Shown here: positions 18,598 to 31,776 of the stretch, one piece after another
Layout of the letters: each line of letters begins with the position of its first letter
How positions within the stretch are numbered: the first letter of the stretch is position 1
Origin: Cryobacterium sp. PH31-O1
Lineage (GTDB): Bacteria; Actinomycetota; Actinomycetes; Actinomycetales; Microbacteriaceae
DNA: 64,000 nucleotides
Direction of reading: 5' to 3'
Assembly (NCBI RefSeq): GCF_030063455.1
Contig: NZ_JASITB010000006.1
Location: forward strand, 186,001-250,000
Notes under the pieces: generated by a model
The model's database searches: none
What the model saw: the letters and a program-made list of their open reading frames with translations, nothing else
Told to the model about the DNA's origin: nothing
Position numbers and translations under genes: made by a program

Positions 18598-19227
18598 TTA
18601 GTGCCCGCGGGCGATCCAGTCGGCCAAATCGGGCGCCTCGGCACCGATCGACGTCGACTCGCCGTGACCGGTTTTGACGACGGTCTCGGCGGGCAGCGTC
18701 AGCAGCTTGGTGGTGATCGATTCGATGATCGTGGGGAAATCACTGTATGAGCGACCGGTCGCACCCGGGCCGCCGTGAAAGAGCGTGTCGCCGCTGAACA
18801 GGGTGCCCAATGCTGGCGCGTAGAGACATACCGAACCGGGCGAATGACCGGGAGTGTGAATGACCTGCAACTCGATGCCGGCCACCTCGATGCGCTGCCC
18901 GTCGGCGAGATTGGCGGTGGGAGCGAGCTCCGGGTAGATGACGTCCCACAGCATCCGGTCGTCGGGGTGCAACCAGACGGGAGCATCCCGGGCAGAGGCT
19001 ACCGCGCCGGCAGCACCGATGTGGTCGTTGTGGCCGTGAGTGCTCACAACGGCGAGTAGCCGACGGTCGCCGACGGCCGCGAGAATGGCATCCGCGTTGT
19101 GAGCGGCATCGATGACCACGCATTCGGTCTCGTCGCCGACGATCCACACATTGTTCTCCAACGCCCAAGTGCCGCCGTCGAGGCTGAAAGTACCCTCGGT
19201 GACCAGGTGCTCAATGCGCGCGGTCAT
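18598..19227 (-). CDS. MBL-fold hydrolase paired with mycothiol formaldehyde dehydrogenase
   Basis: A 209-residue metallo-beta-lactamase-fold hydrolase of the glyoxalase II group. The metal motif HGHNDH is present, with downstream ligands in HTPGHSPGS, SGDTLFHGG and a C-terminal TGHGEST. Its ATG overlaps the stop of the S-(hydroxymethyl)mycothiol dehydrogenase gene (TAATG), so the two are translationally coupled. M. tuberculosis has the same pair (Rv2259-Rv2260). The expected role is hydrolysis of the S-formylmycothiol thioester produced by the dehydrogenase, regenerating mycothiol and formate; this is an inference from context. Confidence 0.88.
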   Translation of the reverse strand: MTARIEHLVTEGTFSLDGGTWALENNVWIVGDETECVVIDAAHNADAILAAVGDRRLLAVVSTHGHNDHIGAAGAVASARDAPVWLHPDDRMLWDVIYPELAPTANLADGQRIEVAGIELQVIHTPGHSPGSVCLYAPALGTLFSGDTLFHGGPGATGRSYSDFPTIIESITTKLLTLPAETVVKTGHGESTSIGAEAPDLADWIARGH

Positions 19228-20321
19228 TACAACACCACCACGGAGCGCAGCACGTCGCCGGAGGCCATCTTGGCGAAGGCGGCCTCGATATCGTCGATAC
19301 CGATACGTTCGCTCACAAAATCAGCCAACGGTAATCTCCCTTGCAGATAGAGGTCGGTGAGCATGGGAAAGTCACGCTCGGGCAGGCAATCGCCGTACCA
19401 GGAGGATTTCAGTGAGCCGCCGCGGCCGAACACATCGAGTAGCGGGATCTCGAGCATCATGTCGGGCGTTGGCACCCCAACGAGAACGACAGTTCCGGCG
19501 AGATCGCGGGCGTAGAACGCCTGGCGCCAGGTTTCGGGGCGGCCCACCGCGTCGATGACGACGTCGGCGCCAAAGCCGCCGGTGAGTGCTTGCACGGCCG
19601 CTACCACGCCATCCTCGTCGAGTCCGGAGGAGTCGATCCGGTGCGTGGCACCGAGCTCTTGGGCTTTTTGCAGCTTCTTTGCGTCGCGATCAATGGCGAT
19701 GATGACGGATGCCCCGGCGAGCCTCGATCCGACGACGGCCGCGTTTCCGACGCCGCCGCAGCCGATCACGGCAACCGAGTCGCCATGGCTCACGTTGCCC
19801 GTGTTCATTGCCGCTCCGATGCCGGCCATAATGCCGCAGCCGAGCAGTCCGACCGCCGCCGGGTCGGCATCCTGGTTGACCCTGGTGCACTGTTTCTCAT
19901 GCACGAGGGTTTTTTCGGCGAAGGCACCGATTCCGAGGGCCGGGCTGAGCTCGGTGCCGTCGGTGAGGGTCATCTTCTGGGTGGCGTTAAAGGTGTTGAA
20001 GCAATACCAAGGCTCGGCGCGTTTGCAGGCCCGGCAGTCGCCGCAGACGGCCCGCCAGTTGAGCACGACAAAGTCACCGACGGCGACATGGGTGACGCCC
20101 TCACCGATGACGCTTACCCGGCCGGCGGCCTCATGCCCGAGCAAAAAGGGGAAGTCGTCGTTGATGCCGCCCTCTTTGTAGTGAAAGTCGGTGTGGCACA
20201 CGCCGCAGGTCTCGATGTCGACGACAACCTCGCCCGGGCCGGGGTCGGGAATGACAATACTCGTGAGCTCAACGGGAGCCCCCTTCGAACGGGCGATCGC
20301 GCCTTGAACGGTGATGGGCAT
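19227..20321 (-). CDS. mscR: S-(hydroxymethyl)mycothiol dehydrogenase
   Basis: A 364-residue zinc-dependent medium-chain dehydrogenase. The catalytic zinc site is seen in [11 protein letters not shown] and GHEAAG, and the structural zinc cysteines in [15 protein letters not shown]. The NAD-binding [12 protein letters not shown] is also present. The sequence pattern ([27 protein letters not shown]) is that of the mycothiol-dependent formaldehyde dehydrogenase/S-nitrosomycothiol reductase MscR (AdhE2). It oxidises the adduct of formaldehyde and mycothiol with NAD. ATG 20321 has AGGAG upstream; longer forms are unsupported. Confidence 0.92.
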
Positions 20322-20525: not shown

Positions 20526-21665
20526 ATGACCATGACCATTTCGCAGACGAGGATCGACGAGGCCGTTGCGGAGGTTGCGGCAGTGGCTGCAGCTCACGCC
20601 GAACAGGTCGATACTGACGGTGACTACCCGGTGGATGCCGTCGAGGCGTTGCGAGGGAGTGGGCTACTCGGGCTGGTGATCAGCGAGGAATCTGGGGGCA
20701 TGGGTGCCGGTCCAGTCGAATTCATCGAAGTAGTCGGCGCCATCGCTGCGGCCTGCGGATCGACTGCCATGATCTACCTCATGCACGTCGCGGCGGCGGT
20801 AACAGTGGCCTCCGCCCCTCCGGCCGCGCTGCCGGGCCTACTGCGCCGAATGGCGTCGGGTGAGGTGCTGGGTACCTTGGCTTTCAGCGAAAAGGGTTCG
20901 CGTTCGCACTTCTGGGCTCCAGTGTCCGAATCCGTCGCCGACGGCGACGACCTGCAATTCACCGCCTATAAGAGTTGGGTGACCTCGGCCGGTCACGCCG
21001 ACGTCTTCGTGATGTCGTCCAAGAGCGCGGTCGATCCGGAAACCGTCGACCTTTACGCGATCCCTGCGGACACACCCGGTCTGGAGATCGCCGGCCCGTG
21101 GAGTGGGCTGGGGTTGCGCGGCAACGCCTCGAGCCCAATGTCGGTATCGGTAACGATTCCATCCGGCTATCGCATCGGTCAGGCGGGCAGCGGGTTCGGC
21201 ACGATGATGGCCACCGTGCTGCCGTGGTTCAACCTGGGTAACTCAGCCGTGTCGCTTGGGCTGTCGCGGGCGGCGGTGGACGCAGCGACGACGCACGTGA
21301 CGGGTGCCCGATTGGAGCATTTAGATCAGGCGCTGTCGTCATTGCCGACCATCCGCGCTCAGGTGGCGAAAATGAGCATCGCCCTTGCCGCCCAGAACGC
21401 CTACCTGGCGATGGCGGCGTCACGGGTCGCGAGCCCCGCCGACGATACCGGTCTGTTCGTTCTTGGCGTGAAAGCCTCGACCAACGACGCCGCGCTGACA
21501 ATTACCGAAACGGCGATGCGGGTCTGCGGTGGGGCGGCGTTCTCGAAGCATCTTCCCATCGAGCGGGCCTTTCGGGATGCCCGCGCCGGATCGGTCATGG
21601 CCCCAACAGCCGACGTGCTCTACGACTTCTACGGTAAGGCCCTCACCGGCCTTCCGCTGTTCTGA
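20526..21665 (+). CDS. Acyl-CoA dehydrogenase-like flavoprotein
   Basis: A 379-residue protein of the acyl-CoA dehydrogenase (ACAD) fold. It has an N-terminal helical domain (residues 1-115), a middle beta domain with GTLAFSEKGSRSHFWAP and FTAYKSWVTSAGHADVFV, and a C-terminal helical domain ending in RVCGGAAFSKHLPIERAFRDARAG. At the position where many ACADs carry the catalytic Glu in an EGT motif, this protein has MAPTADVL. It may therefore use another acid or act as an ACAD-like monooxygenase (DszC/HsaA type). TAGGAG ends five bases before ATG 20526. It is first in a five-gene operon and seven bases before the next gene. Confidence 0.85.
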   Translation: MTMTISQTRIDEAVAEVAAVAAAHAEQVDTDGDYPVDAVEALRGSGLLGLVISEESGGMGAGPVEFIEVVGAIAAACGSTAMIYLMHVAAAVTVASAPPAALPGLLRRMASGEVLGTLAFSEKGSRSHFWAPVSESVADGDDLQFTAYKSWVTSAGHADVFVMSSKSAVDPETVDLYAIPADTPGLEIAGPWSGLGLRGNASSPMSVSVTIPSGYRIGQAGSGFGTMMATVLPWFNLGNSAVSLGLSRAAVDAATTHVTGARLEHLDQALSSLPTIRAQVAKMSIALAAQNAYLAMAASRVASPADDTGLFVLGVKASTNDAALTITETAMRVCGGAAFSKHLPIERAFRDARAGSVMAPTADVLYDFYGKALTGLPLF

Positions 21666-21672
21666 GCGCCGG

Positions 21673-22497
21673 ATGTCTCAGCTCAGCGGAGCCCCTCTTC
21701 TCGTCGGAGCGGTCGCCTACACGCCCAACGTCGTTCCCATCTGGGAGGGCATCCGCGACTACTTTGACACGCCCGATACGGCCATGGACTTCGTACTGTT
21801 CTCTAATTACGGTCGCCTCGTGGATGCCCTCCGGGCCGGAATGATCGATATTGCCTGGAATACCAACCTTGCCTATGCTCGCTCTGTACTGCAGACCGAC
21901 GGCCATGTGCGGGCGCTCGCGATGCGGGACACTGACGCCGCATTCTCGACGGTGTTCGTGGCGGCGGCGGGAAGCGGCTGGTCTGGCCCCGGTGACATCG
22001 GGTCCCGGCGGCTGGCACTCGGGTCGGCGGACTCGGCGCACGCCGCGATCCTGCCCCTGCACTATCTCCGGGCGGCCGGGATAGATGTAGAACATATGCA
22101 GCTCAAGCGCTTCGACAGCGATATCGGTAAGCACGGCGACACCGGGCGCAGCGAGCTCGACGCGATCGATGCGGTTCTTGCGGGGGATGCCGACGTTGCC
22201 GCTATCGGCATCACGGTCTGGGAGAACATCGGCCGAGGTGACCTGATGCCGGGCACGCTGGAACAGGTCTGGCAAACGGAGAAATACTCGCACTGTATGT
22301 TCACCGCCCTCGACACCCTTCCCGAGTCAGTGAGTGCTCCGTGGGTGGCGAAACTGCTCGCAATGGACTGGGAGGTGCCCGCGCATCGACGCATCCTTGA
22401 ACTGGAGGGGCTCACCCGGTGGGTCGAGCCACATCTGGACGGTTATACCGGCCTGTTCGAAGCGATCGCGCAGCAGGGCGTCGATTCCCGATGGTAG
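21673..22497 (+). CDS. PhnD-like substrate-binding-fold protein without signal peptide
   Basis: A 274-residue type II periplasmic-binding-protein fold of the PhnD/phosphonate-binding group. The first strand VGAVAYTPNVVPIWEGIRDYF begins immediately, followed by FVLFSNYGRLVDALRAGMIDIAWNTNLAYA and a late GDADVAAIGITVWENI. There is no signal peptide, lipobox or adjoining ABC permease/ATPase, so it is predicted to be cytosolic. It may be an enzyme, chaperone or ligand sensor rather than a transporter component, as in MqnA-type proteins that use this fold for catalysis. Its stop overlaps the start of the radical-SAM gene. The ligand is unknown. Confidence 0.8.
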   Translation: MSQLSGAPLLVGAVAYTPNVVPIWEGIRDYFDTPDTAMDFVLFSNYGRLVDALRAGMIDIAWNTNLAYARSVLQTDGHVRALAMRDTDAAFSTVFVAAAGSGWSGPGDIGSRRLALGSADSAHAAILPLHYLRAAGIDVEHMQLKRFDSDIGKHGDTGRSELDAIDAVLAGDADVAAIGITVWENIGRGDLMPGTLEQVWQTEKYSHCMFTALDTLPESVSAPWVAKLLAMDWEVPAHRRILELEGLTRWVEPHLDGYTGLFEAIAQQGVDSRW

Positions 22498-23489
22498 TCA
22501 TGGCGCTCATGCGCATCGTGGAACAGCTCGCAGAGGGGGACACCGCCCAGTTTGCGGTGGCGTCGGCCAGCGAACTGGAATTGGTGCGCCGATGGTGTGC
22601 GAAGACGGGCAACACCGTGGTCAGCACGATGATGGTCGAGCAGGATGCCGGCCACGTCACCGTTGGCCGCGGGCGTCCGCGCGACCCGGCTACGATGATT
22701 CCCGCCGACCGGATGCCCGGAGCCAGGCTTTGGTTGTACACCAACTTTCACTGCAACCTGGCCTGCGATTACTGTTGTGTCGCCTCTTCACCGAAAACCG
22801 ATCCTCGCTTGCTCGGGATTGAGACAATTGAGACCCTGGTCGTTGAAGCGGCAGCGTGGGGGGTGCGGGAGTTGTATCTCACCGGCGGTGAACCATTTCT
22901 CCTTCCTGACATCGACGCGATCGTTCGGGCCTGCGTAGGGCAGCTGCCGACAACGCTGTTGACCAATGGAATGCTGTTTCGTGGCTTAGGACTGCGCAAG
23001 CTGCGGGCGATGCCCCGCGAGGGTTTCGCGCTCCAAATCAGTGTGGACTCGTCGACCGCTGAGGTGCACGACTCGCACCGCGGTGCCGGGAGTTGGAAGC
23101 GGGCACTTGCCGGAATCCGGGTGGCACTCGACGAGGGCTTCACCGTTCGTGTCGCGGCGACCATCTCGGCCCACGACGATCCGGCCCTGGACGAGCTGCA
23201 CGCCCTGTTCGACGGACTCGGGATTCCGCGGGCCGACCAGGTCATCCGTCCGATCGCCCTCCAGGGCGTCGCCGATGAAGGGGTGACGTTCTCCCGGGAG
23301 TCGCTGATCCCCGAGGTAACGGTGACAGCGGAGGGCATCTACTGGCATCCGGTTGCCGCACTTGACGCGGACGCCCTCGTCAGCCGGCAGATTCTCCCGC
23401 TGGCTCCCTCCCTCGACCTGGTCAGCGACCTTTTTGCCAAGCAGTGGTCGTCGATGACGGCCGCGTCAGCCATGTTCGCCTGCGCCTGA
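22491..23489 (+). CDS. TusA-like domain fused to radical SAM enzyme
   Basis: A 332-residue fusion. Residues 1-58 resemble a TusA/SirA sulfurtransferase domain (ALMRIVEQLAEGDTAQFAVA and WCAKTGNTVV), but the Cys-Pro active-site motif is absent: the codons just upstream of ATG 22491 read Phe-Pro. Residues 80-300 form a radical SAM domain with the cluster motif CNLACDYC (Cys88, Cys92, Cys95), followed by CVASSP, and the SAM-binding GGEP in LYLTGGEPFLLPD. No C-terminal SPASM cysteine cluster is visible. The start overlaps the upstream stop by seven bases. The CxxxCxxC-x-VxxSP pattern is reminiscent of ArsS/selenobiotic-type radical SAM proteins, which is a weak hint only. The substrate is unknown. 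Confidence 0.82.
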   Translation: MVVMALMRIVEQLAEGDTAQFAVASASELELVRRWCAKTGNTVVSTMMVEQDAGHVTVGRGRPRDPATMIPADRMPGARLWLYTNFHCNLACDYCCVASSPKTDPRLLGIETIETLVVEAAAWGVRELYLTGGEPFLLPDIDAIVRACVGQLPTTLLTNGMLFRGLGLRKLRAMPREGFALQISVDSSTAEVHDSHRGAGSWKRALAGIRVALDEGFTVRVAATISAHDDPALDELHALFDGLGIPRADQVIRPIALQGVADEGVTFSRESLIPEVTVTAEGIYWHPVAALDADALVSRQILPLAPSLDLVSDLFAKQWSSMTAASAMFACA

Positions 23490-23506
23490 AAGGGAATGTG
23501 AATGCG

Positions 23507-24061
23507 ATGATCGGAAGCAAGACCCCAATGAGGGTCAACGAGTTGGACGTCAATGCGATCGCGGCCGGTCGGCCCACCCGCGTGGTGCTGGCGGCAGTGC
23601 GGATCGCGGTCGGGCTGATGTGGCTGCAAAACGTGAATTGGAAACGCCCGCCAGACTTCGGGCAGGCTTCGGGAAATGGCCTCTACCAGTACACCGCTGA
23701 CGCGGTCAAAAATCCGGTTCTGGAGCCGTTCAGCTGGCTGGTGACGAACGTCATATTCCCGAATTTCGCTCTCTTCGGCTGGGGGGTACTCATCGTCGAG
23801 TTCTGCCTCGGTGCGTTCCTGCTGGTTGGACTCCTGACGCGGTTCTGGGCAATCATAGGCATTCTGCAGACGATTGCGATCACGCTCTCGGTGCTGAATA
23901 CCCCGGCGGAGTGGCAGTGGAGCTACTACCTGATGTTCGCCGCGCAATTCGTGCTCTTCGCTACCGCCGCCGGGCGCGTCGCGGGGGTCGATGGGCTGCT
24001 TCGACCACGGTGGTCACTCCACTCGGGCCGGTCGGCCCGGATCGCGATGGCGCTCTCATGA
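23507..24061 (+). CDS. DoxX/DoxD-like integral membrane protein
   Basis: A 184-residue membrane protein with four hydrophobic helices (about residues 25-40, 70-95, 100-125 and 135-155). The sequence VRIAVGLMWLQNVNWKRPP, the extracytoplasmic NGLYQYTADAVKNPVLEPF segment and the closing VAGVDGLLRPR are typical of DoxX/DoxD proteins, whose archaeal members form part of thiosulfate:quinone oxidoreductase. AGGGA lies upstream; GTG 23498 is an alternative start. Its stop overlaps the next gene (ATGA). Its place after a TusA-like fusion suggests a membrane redox partner in sulfur chemistry, which is an inference. Confidence 0.78.
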   Translation: MIGSKTPMRVNELDVNAIAAGRPTRVVLAAVRIAVGLMWLQNVNWKRPPDFGQASGNGLYQYTADAVKNPVLEPFSWLVTNVIFPNFALFGWGVLIVEFCLGAFLLVGLLTRFWAIIGILQTIAITLSVLNTPAEWQWSYYLMFAAQFVLFATAAGRVAGVDGLLRPRWSLHSGRSARIAMALS

Positions 24062-24444
24062 CCGGCACAGCGCCGGCACGGGCTCGCCGCACCCTAAGCT
24101 GGCGCGCCCGCGGACTACTCGTCGCCGGGTTCACGGCGCTCAGTGCATTGTTCGCCCTGGTGGACTACACGCCGCTGCATTTTGTTGCGGTGAACCTCGT
24201 GCAAGGGTTGTTGCTGGTCGGTCTGGCAGCGGTGGCCGCGCTGGGCTGCGCGCTTCGGCTTCCAGCGTTTATTCTCGTCGCCGGCTCGATCTTGATTGTC
24301 GCCGGTCTGGTGCGGCTCGCCACCTACGGGCAAACAATCGGAATCATCTCCGGTTCGGTCAACGCCGCCGCGCTGATGGTCGCGCTCGGCACCGCGTTCG
24401 TCGCGATCTGGCTCACCTCGCGGCCGCTGCCAGCACTGCCATGA
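24058..24444 (+). CDS. Small four-helix membrane protein, last gene of operon
   Basis: A 128-residue protein with four hydrophobic helices (about residues 18-38, 44-65, 68-88 and 98-120) and a short Arg-rich cytoplasmic start (RARRTLSWRARG). The ATG overlaps the stop of the DoxX-like gene. It contains no cysteine or histidine clusters that would indicate a cofactor. I do not recognise the family. Coupled translation suggests it acts with the DoxX-like protein in the membrane. Confidence 0.72.
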   Translation: MTGTAPARARRTLSWRARGLLVAGFTALSALFALVDYTPLHFVAVNLVQGLLLVGLAAVAALGCALRLPAFILVAGSILIVAGLVRLATYGQTIGIISGSVNAAALMVALGTAFVAIWLTSRPLPALP

Positions 24445-26754: not shown

Positions 26755-29091
26755 TCAGGACTTGTGCTCGACGACTTCGCCGTATTTCTGTTCCAGCTCC
26801 CGCACCCGGGCCTCAAGCTTGTTGATCTTGAGTACGCGGCGGTCGGGAACCATAATCAGCGGCAGCTCGGCGAGCCTGCCCGTGACCCGTTCCGGTTCGG
26901 CGCCACCCCAGTGGGTGGCGATCAGGTTCTCATCATTGTCCTGGCCCCAGGAACCGAAGTAGTGCAGCTCGGCCGGCGGCTCTTCCTGCACGAACTTCTG
27001 CACGAACTCACGGTAGGGAGTGCCGCGTGAAATGCGATCGCGTCGCATCTGTGCCCGCAGCTCGGTGGTCTGGTCTTCGTGCACAACGTAGGTGCCCGGT
27101 TCCCAGACCACGCCGTACATGCTCGACGCGGTGTGGGCGCTGATACGGTCAAGCTCCAGGTCGGTCACCACGAGTTCCGGGTCGCGTTCCAGCACGTCGC
27201 CGTAACCGCCGCCGGCGCCCTGGGCGATCATGTAGAGCTCGCCCTCCTTTGCCACGTCGAACTGCAAGCCCATATGCGAGGACTGGTAGTCGCCGCCCTC
27301 AAACGGCTGCTCGTTCATCACCCGTTCCATCGAGAGATTGAACTGGGTCGGATCCTTTTTGATGATGTCGTAGATGTTGACATTTTTTACCATTGCGAGG
27401 GGATAGACCGGGCAACCGTAGCCGCCGAACATGCCGGGCACGGAGGAGAACTTGGATCCGCTCGTGACGGTCATGAACCCCCAGCTGGGTGTGCCGCGGG
27501 AGGCGACCATCATTTCGTATCCCATCCCGCCGCGAAACTTGCCGAACCCCTGGTTGTCGCGCACCAGACGCTTACTGACGAGTTGCAAGAAGGGAACTTC
27601 TTCTTCCATGACTTCCTGCTCGCCGATGTCGGCCATCGCGCAGAACAGCGGGGCGACAGCGTCTTCACCGTCACGAAAGGCCTTCGCTCCGCCGCCCATG
27701 CCGTTCAGATCGGCGCAGAGGTTGCCCACCTGCTCGCCGTTCTGGGTGGTGCCGCCCCAGAGAAAATCGTTGATCTGGTTGAACCAGGGCGCGACGACGT
27801 TGGAGTATTTCTGCGGTGCGGAGAACTGCATTTTGGCGAAAGCGCTTTGCAAGGCCGAGAAGCCGCGGAAGGAAGCCTGCAGCGACTGGCCTACGGGTGC
27901 GTCGTATCCGGCATCCGCCCAGCTGTGCTCTTCGGTGATGACTTCAATCGGGCTCATCGCGCCGGTGGAGCGCGGCAGGTCGGGCCACCAGTACGACAGG
28001 ATGGCCTGCACCATGAACGCCTTGGTTGAGGCGAGCGGTGAGTTGATGGCCCGATTGAGAATTTCAGGGCCGGTGCCGGTGAGGTCCACAATCATGCGTT
28101 CGCCCTTGATGGTGATCTTGCAGGCGAACTTGATCAGAATGTTTTCTTTCAGCGTCGAATCAACGAACTGATTGAAGGTGACTGTGCCGTCGGGCAGTTC
28201 GCCGATACGACGCCGTACCTCGGTTTCAACGTCTTCCACCGTGACGCGCAGGGAGGCGACGAACGTCTCCTGGCCGACCTCGTCGATCAGCCGGTCGACG
28301 GTGTCCATGATGCGGCGCACGGCGCCCATCTTCACCTTGATGTCAGCGAGCATGAGCTTCGGGTCGCGGGTGGAGTGTTGCAGAAAGGTGAGGAGGTCGC
28401 GGCGCAGGTGACCCTTTTCCACGATCTTGATCGGTGAGGCGCGCAGGCCGTCATCGAACGGTGTTTCAGATCCCGAGGGCATGCCTCCCGGCTCGCAGGC
28501 GCCATTCTCTCCTTCGTGAATGGTGGCGCCCACCCAGGCGATGATCACGCCGCCGCGAATGACCGGCACCAGCATGGACTGGTCGGTGTTGTGCACCATG
28601 CCAAAGCGGGAGTCGTTGTGGAAGAATCCGTCACCCTCGTTGATGCCGACGGTGGGCTCGTCCTTCCAGTTCTTCATGATGTAGCGGATGGGGTGGTGCA
28701 GCACCGCGGAGAAGGCGATGACGCCGCGGTTGGAGAGATAGGTGACGTCGCCCTCGGCGGTGTACACGGCGCAGGAGAGGTCAGCCCATTTGGCGCCGGG
28801 AGCGGCGCCCATGCTCTCGCACATCTCAAACGCTTCATCTAAGGCCCCGGCCAGGCGCTTACGGATGCGGTCGACCTCTATCGGGTCGATGCCCTGGGCG
28901 ATGCACTGCTCCTCATAGGCGGTACGCGGCATGATTTCGTGGTGGCGCATGATGGCCGGGTCCGGTCCGAGAAAAAGGGTCGTCTCGTCCATGAATTTGT
29001 CGACCCACTGCTGTTCCTGGTCGGTCAGTAGCTGCGATGCGTCGTCGTCGTTTCCGCTGGTGGGCACGAACTCGTCAGTTGTCAGTGTCAT
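26755..29091 (-). CDS. Acetone carboxylase alpha subunit-like (HyuB family)
   Basis: A 778-residue hydantoinase B/oxoprolinase-type subunit, similar in length to acetone carboxylase AcxB (about 776). It would bind the phosphorylated intermediates and form the C-C bond. The residues HNTD (His167, Asp170) and His192 in TIHEGENGACEPGG have exactly the His-x2-Asp-x21-His spacing I recall for the Mn site of Xanthobacter acetone carboxylase (His150, Asp153, His175). The C-terminus ends in a short coiled coil (KINKLEARVRELEQKYGE). ATG 29091 follows AAGGAG. It follows the larger HyuA-like gene by 52 bases. A substrate other than acetone is possible. Confidence 0.85.
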   Translation of the reverse strand: MTLTTDEFVPTSGNDDDASQLLTDQEQQWVDKFMDETTLFLGPDPAIMRHHEIMPRTAYEEQCIAQGIDPIEVDRIRKRLAGALDEAFEMCESMGAAPGAKWADLSCAVYTAEGDVTYLSNRGVIAFSAVLHHPIRYIMKNWKDEPTVGINEGDGFFHNDSRFGMVHNTDQSMLVPVIRGGVIIAWVGATIHEGENGACEPGGMPSGSETPFDDGLRASPIKIVEKGHLRRDLLTFLQHSTRDPKLMLADIKVKMGAVRRIMDTVDRLIDEVGQETFVASLRVTVEDVETEVRRRIGELPDGTVTFNQFVDSTLKENILIKFACKITIKGERMIVDLTGTGPEILNRAINSPLASTKAFMVQAILSYWWPDLPRSTGAMSPIEVITEEHSWADAGYDAPVGQSLQASFRGFSALQSAFAKMQFSAPQKYSNVVAPWFNQINDFLWGGTTQNGEQVGNLCADLNGMGGGAKAFRDGEDAVAPLFCAMADIGEQEVMEEEVPFLQLVSKRLVRDNQGFGKFRGGMGYEMMVASRGTPSWGFMTVTSGSKFSSVPGMFGGYGCPVYPLAMVKNVNIYDIIKKDPTQFNLSMERVMNEQPFEGGDYQSSHMGLQFDVAKEGELYMIAQGAGGGYGDVLERDPELVVTDLELDRISAHTASSMYGVVWEPGTYVVHEDQTTELRAQMRRDRISRGTPYREFVQKFVQEEPPAELHYFGSWGQDNDENLIATHWGGAEPERVTGRLAELPLIMVPDRRVLKINKLEARVRELEQKYGEVVEHKS

Positions 29092-29143
29092 GGTGCTCAA
29101 ACTCCTTTGCTTATGCGAGGTGTTGCGGGGATGAGAGAAGCGG

Positions 29144-31270
29144 TCAGTCGCTGAGTAGCCATACGGCACCCTGCACGGTCGGTTCCAGACGCCAGCCAGG
29201 TTCTACCAGGTAGGTGGTGTTCTCGGTCGTTACGATCGCCGGCCCGTGAATGACGTACTCGTGTTTGAGTGCCTCGGCGTCGTAGACGGGGGTATCCACC
29301 GCGCCGGCGATGCTCGTGAAGTGCACCGACCGGTGCGAGACCGGAGCCGGCTTGGTCTTTTCACCGCCGATCTTGATCGACTCGAACTGGATGACCTCAC
29401 CCTCGATAAAGGACGCCACACGAATGGTCTGCACCCGGATGCCCGCCTCCGGTGCCTGGGTGCCCTCCCCATAGCGCTCGCCGAAGATTTCGGAGAACGT
29501 TTTGATCAGGTGCAGCACATCAGCGACCCCGTTGACCCGGTTGATGTCGAAGGCGACAGCGGTGGTGACGAGCTGGTTTCCGTAGCGCATGTCCATTTCG
29601 AGGCGGTAGCGTACGTCGGCGCGGTCGTACCCCTGGCGCACGAGGTCTTCGGCACCCTTGGCCTCGAGCTCCTCGATGTACCCGTTCAAAGCCGCATATT
29701 CGCTGTACAGGCTGCGCTTGATCGCTTCGTAGAGCACGACGTAAGCGCTGCGTTCGTGAATGTGCAGCGGTCGCATGTTGCCGGCGCCGAGCGCCGAGAA
29801 CACCGAGGCGAACGGTGGAAACAGGATTCGGCTGATGCCGGCGCTCGCCGCGATTCCGCAAGCGTGCAGGGGGCCGTTGCCGCCGTAGGCGAGCATCGTG
29901 TAGTCCTCGATCAGGCCGCCGCGCGAGCGCAGCTCCTTTTCGATGCCGATCGCCATCTGCTCGTCGACGGTTTTCTTGATCACCTTGGCGACCTCCACCG
30001 CGTCAAGGTCGAGCTCATCGCTGAGAGTCTCGTCGATGACGTAGATCGAGCGCTTCCTATTGAGCTTGATGTGCCCGTTGGCGTAGTTATCGGGATCAAG
30101 GTAGCCGAGCACGAGGTCGGCATCGGTCACGGTCGGGCGCAGCCCGCCACGGTCGTAGCAGGCCGGGCCCGGATCGCTGCCCGCCGATTCCGGCCCAATC
30201 TGGACGGCGTGGTGAATGCGATTGTAGGCGGCGATCGAGCCGCCGCCCGCACCGAGGGTGTTGAGGTGGATCATCGGCGCGGAGACCATCCAACGACCAA
30301 TGGTGGGCTGAAAGTCGTAGTGACGCACTCCACCCTCCGGTACCAGTCCGATATCAAACGAGGTACCGCCCATATCCATCGACACGACGTCGCCGAGCCC
30401 GGTCGATTCCGACAGGTGCTGGGCCGCGCCCACTCCGGCGATCGGTCCGGAGTGAATCGTTTGCAGGGCATCCGTCGAATTGGGCTGGGCCATGCCGCCC
30501 GAGTTGTGGATAACGAGCATCGGCTTCTCGTAACCGGAATCACGCAGGTTATTGGAGAGCTGGTTGAGGGCGTGGAACATGGTCTGGTGCAGAAAGGCGT
30601 CAACAATGGTGGCCATGGCCCGCACGTATTCGCCCTTGCGGCCAGAGACCTGGCTGCTGAGCAACACCGGAATCGACCCGAGCTCATGCGTGGGGTACTC
30701 GTCGAGAATAATCTCGAGGATGCGGTCTTCGTGCACCGAGTTCTCGGTGGCATTGGTCAAGGCAATGACAATGGCTTCAGCGCCGTTGTCGACGAGTTCG
30801 CGCACCTGGGTGCGCACATCGTCATACATGAGCGGCACAAGAACCTCACCGACCGAGTCGATGCGTTCCTTGACCGAGCGGATGAGCCGGCGCGGCACGA
30901 GCGGGTCGGGCCGTTGGGCATCCGGCATGTCGCCCTGCTTGACCCCGTCAAGACCTTCGCCATAGCCTCGGCCACGCGAGAGCGGAATGGTGTCTTCGAA
31001 GCCGTGCGTCACGATCGCTGCGACCCGAGGACCCTTACCCTCGATCAGGGCGTTGGTGCCGAGCGTGGTCGCGTAGCGCACCGAGTCGACCTCTTTGAGC
31101 GCTTTTTCCCGGCTGATGCCGGCCCGCTCGCAGGCCCGGTCAAGGGCCTCGTTGAAACCGAGGGCGAGGTTGTGGTGGGTGGTGAGTGCCTTGGACTCGA
31201 TATAGACGTCGTTCCAGACGAAGAAGCAGTCACTGAACGTGCCGCCGATGTCTACGGAAATTCGTTTCAC
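29144..31270 (-). CDS. Acetone carboxylase beta subunit-like ATPase (HyuA family)
   Basis: A 708-residue HyuA-type ASKHA kinase subunit, similar to AcxA (about 717). The first phosphate loop is VDIGGTFSDCF at residues 6-16 and the second MDMGGTSFDIG; LGAGGGSIA and SDPGPACYDRGG are further family motifs. In acetone carboxylase this subunit uses ATP to phosphorylate acetone and bicarbonate. It begins two bases after the gamma-like gene stop and is therefore coupled to it. It coexists with a second, shorter HyuA-like gene in the same operon. Confidence 0.87.
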   Translation of the reverse strand: MKRISVDIGGTFSDCFFVWNDVYIESKALTTHHNLALGFNEALDRACERAGISREKALKEVDSVRYATTLGTNALIEGKGPRVAAIVTHGFEDTIPLSRGRGYGEGLDGVKQGDMPDAQRPDPLVPRRLIRSVKERIDSVGEVLVPLMYDDVRTQVRELVDNGAEAIVIALTNATENSVHEDRILEIILDEYPTHELGSIPVLLSSQVSGRKGEYVRAMATIVDAFLHQTMFHALNQLSNNLRDSGYEKPMLVIHNSGGMAQPNSTDALQTIHSGPIAGVGAAQHLSESTGLGDVVSMDMGGTSFDIGLVPEGGVRHYDFQPTIGRWMVSAPMIHLNTLGAGGGSIAAYNRIHHAVQIGPESAGSDPGPACYDRGGLRPTVTDADLVLGYLDPDNYANGHIKLNRKRSIYVIDETLSDELDLDAVEVAKVIKKTVDEQMAIGIEKELRSRGGLIEDYTMLAYGGNGPLHACGIAASAGISRILFPPFASVFSALGAGNMRPLHIHERSAYVVLYEAIKRSLYSEYAALNGYIEELEAKGAEDLVRQGYDRADVRYRLEMDMRYGNQLVTTAVAFDINRVNGVADVLHLIKTFSEIFGERYGEGTQAPEAGIRVQTIRVASFIEGEVIQFESIKIGGEKTKPAPVSHRSVHFTSIAGAVDTPVYDAEALKHEYVIHGPAIVTTENTTYLVEPGWRLEPTVQGAVWLLSD

Positions 31271-31272
31271 GG

Positions 31273-31728
31273 TCAGTGCCCTTCGGTGCGGTGGGAGTGG
31301 GAATGTGCGGACGCGGAATCAAACCGGGCGCTGAGGTCGGTCTCGGCGTTCTCGCCGGGGCCGTAGTTGACGACCTCCTCGGGGTTGCCGCCGTGGGCTT
31401 CCCACTTCTCGCGCAGGGAATCGATGTCCCAGAGCATGTCGACGGTCGGCGGATGCCCCGGCGGCAGGTATTCCGCTTCAATCTGCGTGCCGCAGGTGGG
31501 GCAGTAGAACTCCAAGATTCGACAGAAGCGCGGGTCGGGGGAGAACGTGAACTCGTACTTCTCCGGGTCGATCACCGGCGGGTGGATCTCCCGTGGGTCC
31601 CGGTCGTAGACCAGGGTGCCTTCCTTGTAGTTGCCGCGGGCGTCGCCGAAGTCGTGGGCGCAGACGCGGCAGATCCACCGCTCGGTGTCGAGGTCGATGA
31701 GCAGGTATTCGGTCATGGGAACGCGCAT
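31273..31728 (-). CDS. Acetone carboxylase gamma subunit-like zinc protein
   Basis: A 151-residue small subunit. Cys20-x2-Cys23 (WICRVCAHDFG) and Cys76-x2-Cys79 (FYCPTCGTQIE) form a zinc-ribbon-like pair. RGNYKEGTLVYDRDPREIH is the segment I associate with acetone and acetophenone carboxylase small subunits. The C-terminal tail is His/Ser-rich. ATG 31728 was chosen, with AAGGAAGG ten bases upstream; ATG 31716 is an alternative. It sits between the two HyuA-like genes. Confidence 0.87.
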   Translation of the reverse strand: MRVPMTEYLLIDLDTERWICRVCAHDFGDARGNYKEGTLVYDRDPREIHPPVIDPEKYEFTFSPDPRFCRILEFYCPTCGTQIEAEYLPPGHPPTVDMLWDIDSLREKWEAHGGNPEEVVNYGPGENAETDLSARFDSASAHSHSHRTEGH

Positions 31729-31776
31729 TTTGTTTGTACCTTCCTTGGGAAACAAAGTGGGTCGAGGGTTCGGAGG

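What the first reader, a model, noticed from the sequence alone, without database searches (positions are those of the whole stretch)
20526..24444. Undescribed five-gene operon: ACAD-like flavoprotein, cytosolic PhnD-fold protein, TusA-radical SAM fusion, DoxX-like and small membrane protein
Five genes on one strand, with gaps of 7, -7, 17 and -4 bases, combine families that do not form any pathway I know. A TusA-like domain and a DoxX/DoxD-like protein point to sulfur or thiosulfate-related chemistry. The radical SAM enzyme points to a difficult bond change, the flavoprotein to oxidation or desaturation, and the PhnD fold to binding of a small anionic ligand inside the cell. A biosynthetic or catabolic route for an organosulfur (or seleno/arseno) compound is one reading; this is inference.
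Basis: partly seen in the sequence, partly recalled or inferred. Interest (0 to 1): 0.78.

Follow-up and report, generated by a model that had tools for sequence, protein, structure and literature searches.

The report
Radical-SAM add-on to thiosugar pathway
Five neighbouring genes, related to unexplained genes of the tuberculosis bacterium, travel together through many actinobacteria and sometimes sit inside the gene set that makes an unusual sulfur-bearing cell-surface sugar, so they probably build or alter such a sugar.

Summary
The five genes and spacings are real. They are not undescribed as families: four of five exceed NCBIfam cut-offs for Rv1679/FadE16, Rv1680, Rv1681 and Rv1678 of M. 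tuberculosis. I found no work on their function. The set is a conserved module, mostly actinobacterial: ACAD-SBP-radical SAM are contiguous in 79 of 91 non-duplicate loci. New here: among 736 flanking ORF clusters the commonest are genes of the methylthioxylose (MTX) type sugar pathway (DUF2064, GT2, then an SDR level with a response regulator). At least one MTX-type gene lies within 8 kb in 23 of 91 loci, sometimes in one operon. The window's genome has such a cluster on another contig; a congener has both sets within 10 kb. Best reading: an add-on that makes or alters a 5-substituted (thio)pentose precursor for polyprenyl-phosphate-dependent transfer to the envelope. The ACAD-like protein lacks the catalytic Glu, the binding protein has a rebuilt oxyanion pocket, and the TusA-like part lacks its Cys. 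The reaction itself is inferred, not shown.

The parts
20526..21665 (+). ACAD-fold flavoprotein, Rv1679/FadE16 family, catalytic Glu position replaced by invariant Ala359
   Evidence: NF049984 635.3 bits, cut-off 600; 30-member alignment A6, A359 invariant
21673..22497 (+). PhnD-fold protein without visible signal peptide, Rv1680 family, pocket rebuilt (H207, C208, K153-H154-G155-D156 invariant)
   Evidence: NF049985 478.8 bits, cut-off 400; 45-member alignment A5; closest solved structures PhnD1 7s6g/5lq5
22491..23489 (+). Radical SAM protein, Rv1681 family (CxxxCxxCC), with N-terminal TusA-like part lacking the CPxP strand
   Evidence: NF049973 497.1 bits, cut-off 380; 58-member alignment A4, invariant C88, C92, C95, C96, C331; model md389578f3cd9
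23507..24061 (+). DoxX/DoxD-like membrane protein (N-terminal half of the Rv1678-type fusion)
   Evidence: PF04173 35.8 bits, cut-off 22.7; in mycobacterial loci such as L072, L079 one protein of 302-314 aa stands in place of the two genes
24058..24444 (+). Small membrane protein, Rv1678 C-terminal family
   Evidence: NF049986 66.5 bits, cut-off 50; three hydrophobic segments in a simple Kyte-Doolittle scan

Best explanation
The five genes are the window's copy of the Rv1678-Rv1681 module, an accessory of the MTX-type pathway. In that pathway methylthioadenosine is split by a phosphorylase (MTAP), the pentose is epimerised (SDR), activated (DUF2064, a nucleotidylyltransferase-like protein), loaded on polyprenyl phosphate (GT2, MtxS-like) and transferred outside by a GT-C enzyme (MtxT-like); this step order is partly recalled and partly inferred from the families. 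The module would work on the cytosolic side: the radical SAM enzyme makes or rearranges the 5-substituent or the pentose of a 5-(methyl)thio-nucleoside or sugar-phosphate; the PhnD-fold protein binds or hands over the phosphorylated or anionic intermediate; the ACAD-like flavoprotein does a redox or oxygenation step that is not acyl-CoA dehydrogenation; the DoxX/small membrane pair either passes electrons or moves the lipid-linked product. Shown here: gene identity, conservation, linkage to the pathway genes in a quarter of the loci, presence of such a cluster in the window's genome, loss of ancestral active-site features. Inferred: that the linkage means a shared pathway, and every reaction step.
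Confidence: 0.55

Rival explanations
1. ArsS-like adenosylation: the radical SAM enzyme joins the 5'-deoxyadenosyl group to an anionic or nucleophilic atom X (S, As, Se or P), giving 5'-X-5'-deoxyadenosine that MTAP and the DUF2064/GT2/GT-C enzymes turn into a 5-X-pentose cap. The PhnD-type protein supplies X.
Against: The window-type binding protein has lost most oxyanion contacts of PhnD1. The Pfam scan of 58 members shows no extra domain of the ArsS kind; ArsS itself was not compared.
Confidence: 0.17
2. Sulfur tailoring of MTX: the ACAD-fold protein is an S-oxygenase that makes the sulfoxide MSX (or starts demethylation), and the other proteins serve that reaction.
For: MTX and MSX are reported on lipoarabinomannan of the four M. 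tuberculosis strains examined (PMC8531672, passages). The ACAD profile also matches DszC, an S-oxygenase of this fold (function recalled), at 90.5 bits (4doy). Catalytic Glu absent.
Against: Acyl-CoA dehydrogenases score higher (153 bits). A simple S-oxidation does not need a radical SAM enzyme, and the subfamily 2 operons of L053 and L058 lack the ACAD gene (elsewhere in those genomes not tested).
Confidence: 0.1
3. An independent sulfur or oxyanion metabolic module whose nearness to sugar genes reflects co-regulation (PhoB/PhoR-like genes lie there too) or shared islands.
For: 68 of 91 loci are not near the sugar genes; the window-type cassette has different flanks in 6 of 8 other genomes of the genus; a PhoB/PhoR-like pair is among the recurrent neighbours.
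Against: Contiguous operons with the sugar genes in several lineages, a dedicated DUF2064 paralogue, and placement inside the cluster in L079 and L146.
Confidence: 0.15
4. Molybdopterin biosynthesis, as in the database name MoeX for Rv1681.
Against: Far below the MoaA cut-off of 284; none of the recurrent neighbours annotated is a molybdopterin synthesis gene (a molybdopterin-using enzyme lies in L140).
Confidence: 0.02

Closest known systems
M. tuberculosis gene set Rv1678-Rv1679(fadE16)-Rv1680-Rv1681(moeX), NCBIfam NF049986, NF049984, NF049985, NF049973
   Same: Four of five window proteins exceed the curated cut-offs; relatives keep the ACAD-SBP-rSAM order
   Different: In the window DoxX and the small membrane protein are two genes and lie after the rSAM gene; in mycobacterial loci they are one gene before it. 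M. tuberculosis itself was not among the loci returned
MTX capping pathway of lipoarabinomannan, Rv0535-Rv0541c with MtxS = Rv0539 and MtxT = Rv0541c (PMC8780516 figure legend; starts from methylthioadenosine, PMC11127046 passage)
   Same: MTAP, SDR, DUF2064, GT2 and GT-C genes linked to the module in 23 of 91 loci and present as a cluster in the window's genome; locus L175 has the gene order and strands that I recall for Rv0535-Rv0541c
   Different: The module is an extra, absent from many genomes with DUF2064; the window's cluster has a different GT-C type and a methyltransferase; product unknown
Arsenosugar pathway (ArsM, ArsS, TIGR04282, TIGR04283)
   Same: Same logic of radical SAM plus TIGR04282-like plus GT2 (gene list recalled)
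   Different: DUF2064 proteins below the TIGR04282 cut-off; rSAM of another family; arsenic not implicated
PhnD1 / PtxB phosphite-phosphate binding proteins
   Different: No visible signal peptide; STS motif becomes S-A-H in the window and S-A-Q in the consensus, D203 becomes H207, capping Y204 becomes C208

Membership tests
Rv1678-Rv1681 gene set | Curated NCBIfam cut-offs for FadE16, Rv1680, Rv1681 and Rv1678 C-terminal families | tested here: met
   635.3/600, 478.8/400, 497.1/380, 66.5/50 bits
Rv1678-Rv1681 gene set | Genes adjacent on one strand | tested here: met
   Gaps 7, -7, 17, -4; 79 of 91 loci keep ACAD-SBP-rSAM
MTX-type sugar pathway (as host pathway) | MTAP, SDR, DUF2064, GT2 and a GT-C gene in the same genome | tested here: met
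   L140 cluster on contig C10; MTAP 268 bits, below the 306 cut-off of NF005876
MTX-type sugar pathway (as host pathway) | MtxT-type GT-C transferase | tested here: inconclusive
   L123 GT-C query: no match in the genome; a GT87-type GT-C lies in the cluster
MTX-type sugar pathway (as host pathway) | Methylthio-pentose on a cell-surface glycan | not testable with these tools
   Needs chemistry
Acyl-CoA dehydrogenase | ACAD fold domains | tested here: met
   PF00441, PF02770, PF02771 over cut-off
Acyl-CoA dehydrogenase | Catalytic Glu of the MCAD type | tested here: not met
   Invariant Ala359 at that place in 30 of 30 aligned sequences (MCAD motif recalled)
Phosphonate/phosphite ABC binding protein | Canonical pocket (Y44, STS, H156, D203, Y204 in PhnD1) | tested here: not met
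   Only Tyr and one Ser kept
Phosphonate/phosphite ABC binding protein | Signal peptide and ABC transporter partners | tested here: not met
   Protein starts at the fold by inspection of the alignment, no predictor run; no ABC gene among the window's neighbours scanned
TusA sulfur carrier | First strand with CPxP Cys | tested here: not met
   Absent in the window protein; subfamily 2 has a strand with DCGSG; Pfam TusA 14.8 against 28.6
Thiosulfate:quinone oxidoreductase DoxD | NCBIfam TQO large-subunit cut-off | tested here: not met
   34.5 against 300 bits
Arsenosugar TIGR04282 | Curated cut-off 134 bits | tested here: not met
   115.4 for the window genome's DUF2064, 124.8 for L099, 106.1 for L145
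MoaA | TIGR02666 cut-off 284.05 bits | tested here: not met
   58.1 bits

The most novel reading that the evidence does not exclude
The module is a dedicated radical-SAM branch that makes a new kind of 5-substituted pentofuranose donor (other than methylthioxylose), with its own nucleotidylyltransferase paralogue in some species, used to decorate envelopes in many actinobacteria and some Dormiibacterota, including organisms not known to make lipoarabinomannan; the orphan Rv1678-Rv1681 genes of the tuberculosis bacterium would belong to the same chemistry.
Probability: 0.25. Interest if true: 0.8.

Novelty: new variant of a known kind. Interest (0 to 1): 0.6.

Why it matters
Rv1681 is a tuberculosis urine marker with a guessed name (MoeX, PMC4202705 passages), and MTX-capped lipoarabinomannan is another diagnostic target (PMC6258851 passages). 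Linking the two gene sets gives the first testable function for Rv1678-Rv1681 that I could find. It also bears on a question left open in print, whether the MTX reaction exists outside lipoarabinomannan assembly (PMC11127046 passage): MTX-type gene groups occur here in Cryobacterium, Agromyces and Streptomyces. If the module makes a different sugar, it is new radical-SAM carbohydrate chemistry.

Tried and rejected
Moco role (MoeX name): rejected on scores and neighbourhood. Plain thiosulfate oxidation (DoxD): TQO model not met. Formaldehyde/mycothiol link with the divergent genes at 18598-20306: not kept in relatives (their clusters have two members each). DUF2064 co-occurrence as sole evidence: judged weak, since it is near universal in several families. 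L046/L127 and L109 were first counted as linked (27 of 95) and dropped as marginal (60-100 bits); four duplicate loci (L046, L048, L054, L055) were also dropped, giving 23 of 91. The DUF2064-like gene of L100 (74 bits) falls under that threshold too. The ABC ATPase cluster (10 loci) is mixed and not all PhnC. 80 of 388 relatives from the genome scan were returned and examined; I first took them all for actinobacteria, but Candidatus Aeolococcus and Amunia (L100, L122) are Dormiibacterota. In one search the family search rang in 163 of 198 genomes because of other radical SAM proteins; two of the listed matches were near full length (496.6 and 320.6 bits), so E<=1e-45 was used. The VIA list barely covered the N-terminal 63 residues of the rSAM model, so the TusA fold rests on topology, weak Pfam hits and the subfamily-2 sequences. 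The first DUF2064 tree held a 46-aa fragment; redone without it: the linked copies stay one clade (support 0.93), but its exact sister group is unsupported (0.30). Literature: no paper in the held library has two of Rv1678-Rv1681; single-term searches listed biomarker, proteomics, annotation and many unrelated papers (most seen as listing only); others (ten of 1,075 listed) showed no paper linking MTX or DUF2064 to this module. Angala 2017 on MTX biosynthesis is not held and is known here only through citations. Of the papers opened I saw passages only.
Full report
Observation. The domain names are right: ACAD, PhnD-type binding protein, radical SAM, DoxD/DoxX; the fifth has no Pfam hit. The window lies on contig C14 of a 3.64-Mb genome; the nearest named relative returned is Cryobacterium flavum (92% identity in the rSAM protein).

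Known families. NCBIfam places four of the five over curated cut-offs: Rv1679/FadE16 635.3 (600), Rv1680 478.8 (400), Rv1681 497.1 (380) and Rv1678 C-terminus 66.5 (50). The gene set is therefore catalogued; a function is not. The library has no paper with two or more of the four locus names. The one mention of Rv1680 that I opened calls it a putative phosphonate transporter component (PMC8562490, passage). Rv1681 appears as the urine marker 'MoeX' (PMC4202705, passages).

Conservation. A scan of named genomes found 388 relatives, of which 80 were returned. By title they are actinobacteria, except two Candidatus Dormiibacterota (L100, L122). With 14 unnamed loci and the window this gave 95 loci, 91 after removing four duplicates. 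ACAD-SBP-rSAM are contiguous on one strand in 79 of 91 and SBP-rSAM in 86 of 91; a DoxX gene lies before rSAM in 62 and after it in 17. The commonest layout is DoxX-membrane-ACAD-SBP-rSAM (40 loci); in 19 loci, mycobacteria among them, one longer DoxX protein (240-519 aa as called, mostly about 300) stands for both membrane genes; the window's order has 9 loci. In the window's genus 19 of 57 genomes carry the rSAM gene, in two groups by score. Of eight other genomes with the window-type cassette that I fetched, L151 shares the window's flanking genes on both sides, L150 on one side, and six neither: a patchy, moving cassette.

Neighbours. I clustered all flanking ORFs without prior choice. Of 736 non-core clusters within 8 kb (singletons included) the most frequent were DUF2064 (19 loci), GT2 (14), an SDR epimerase and a response regulator (11 each), then a mixed ABC ATPase group (10). 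Profiles identify DUF2064 as TIGR04282-like, the GT2 as dolichyl-phosphate-hexose-synthase-like, and another recurrent neighbour as methylthioadenosine phosphorylase (478 bits, cut-off 306); a ~450-aa membrane protein resembles PMT/GT-C transferases weakly. With a 100-bit threshold, 23 of 91 loci have at least one of DUF2064, GT2, SDR, MTAP, GT-C within 8 kb and 18 have two or more; 68 have none, though 33 of the 91 loci have under 7 kb on at least one side. In L100 and L068 the two sets run on one strand with short gaps or overlaps; in L049 nearly so.

This neighbour set is the MTX pathway. MtxS is Rv0539 and MtxT is Rv0541c (PMC8780516, figure legend), and the donor starts from methylthioadenosine (PMC11127046, passage). 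Locus L175 has MTAP-SDR-(opposite)-ORF-GT2-DUF2064-(opposite) GT-C, the order I recall for Rv0535-Rv0541c. Its genome, G275, is unnamed; I take it for a mycobacterium by synteny with L072 and others. There the rSAM operon lies 18 kb away. In Mycolicibacterium pyrenivorans (L079) the module is placed between the SDR and a hydrolase gene that are neighbours in G371 (L174), a genome of the same genus code that was rSAM-negative.

The window's own genome. No pathway gene lies near the window's copy. A DUF2064 gene (57% identity to L099's) and MTAP lie 5 kb apart on contig C10; that stretch (L140) also has SDR, GT2, a response regulator/kinase pair, a methyltransferase, a GT87-type GT-C and a cytochrome b561-molybdopterin oxidoreductase. 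A MtxT-like query found nothing. A congener, G582, has ACAD, GT-C, DUF2064, GT2, response regulator, kinase, DoxX, membrane protein, SBP, rSAM and SDR in about 10 kb, without MTAP there (L146).

Co-occurrence. In the class sample all 14 rSAM-positive genomes (E<=1e-45) have DUF2064 against 150 of 380 others, but DUF2064 is near universal in several of those families, so this is weak. Of the 13 whose place was listed (that of G552 was not), 5 (G215, G238, G275, G294, G367) have it within 20 kb; about 0.12 of 14 would be expected at random (my arithmetic; some of these genomes also gave loci above, so this is not independent). In the order sample DUF2064 is in 17 of 198 genomes, including both rSAM carriers. 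In the genus sample it is in 52 of 57, including all 19 rSAM carriers. A second full copy occurs in 4 of 19 carriers and 0 of 38 others (three other two-match genomes are split hits at one place); it lies from 16 bases to about 2 kb from the rSAM gene, and these copies form one clade (support 0.93) apart from the cluster copies, with an unsupported sister position (L107/L158, L118/L159 and L125/L145 are the same genomes twice, so four genomes). That favours a distinct product over simple tailoring.

Mechanism. The commitment is to an add-on of the MTX-type pathway that makes or alters a 5-substituted pentose precursor (0.55). Among neighbouring readings, radical adenosylation of an X atom as in arsenosugar synthesis (PMC12159101, passages) is a serious rival (0.17), sulfoxidation of MTX less so (0.10). 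An unrelated module is 0.15. The reaction of each protein is inference.

Novelty. The families are known; the tie to the MTX-type pathway was not seen in the searches made. I class it as a new variant of a known kind.

Noticed in passing
window 18598-20306 (-): S-(hydroxymethyl)mycothiol dehydrogenase (TIGR03451 650.7 bits, cut-off 512.9) and an MBL-fold hydrolase, divergent from the operon; each clusters with only one other locus gene, so not part of the module.
   Followed up: partly
window 26755-31755 (-): Hydantoinase B, hydantoinase A and acetone carboxylase gamma-like genes in a row, like an acetone/acetophenone carboxylase operon.
   Followed up: no
L140 6010-7269 (+), 7972-8814 (-): The MTX-type cluster of the window's genome also has a cytochrome b561-molybdopterin oxidoreductase fusion and a methyltransferase; relatives of both lie in the module-free locus L174.
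   Followed up: partly
L053 2413-8690, L058 2401-8600: Sister subfamily: rSAM with a Cys-bearing TusA-like domain, long DoxX protein, TIGR04553 lipoprotein and ABC genes in one operon, with a divergent methyltransferase.
   Followed up: partly
L057 6803-8527 (-): A distant rSAM relative fused to a calcineurin-like phosphoesterase domain.
   Followed up: no
L100, L122: The module also occurs in Candidatus Dormiibacterota; in L100 it follows MTAP, GT2 and a DUF2064-like gene on one strand.
   Followed up: partly
L072, L073, L076, L083 and others: In several mycobacteria the operon sits near a conserved block (clusters c22-c21-c12), and in G275 it is 18 kb from the MTX cluster; a paper calls the moeX gene unique to the M. 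tuberculosis complex (PMC4202705), which these loci contradict at family level.
   Followed up: partly
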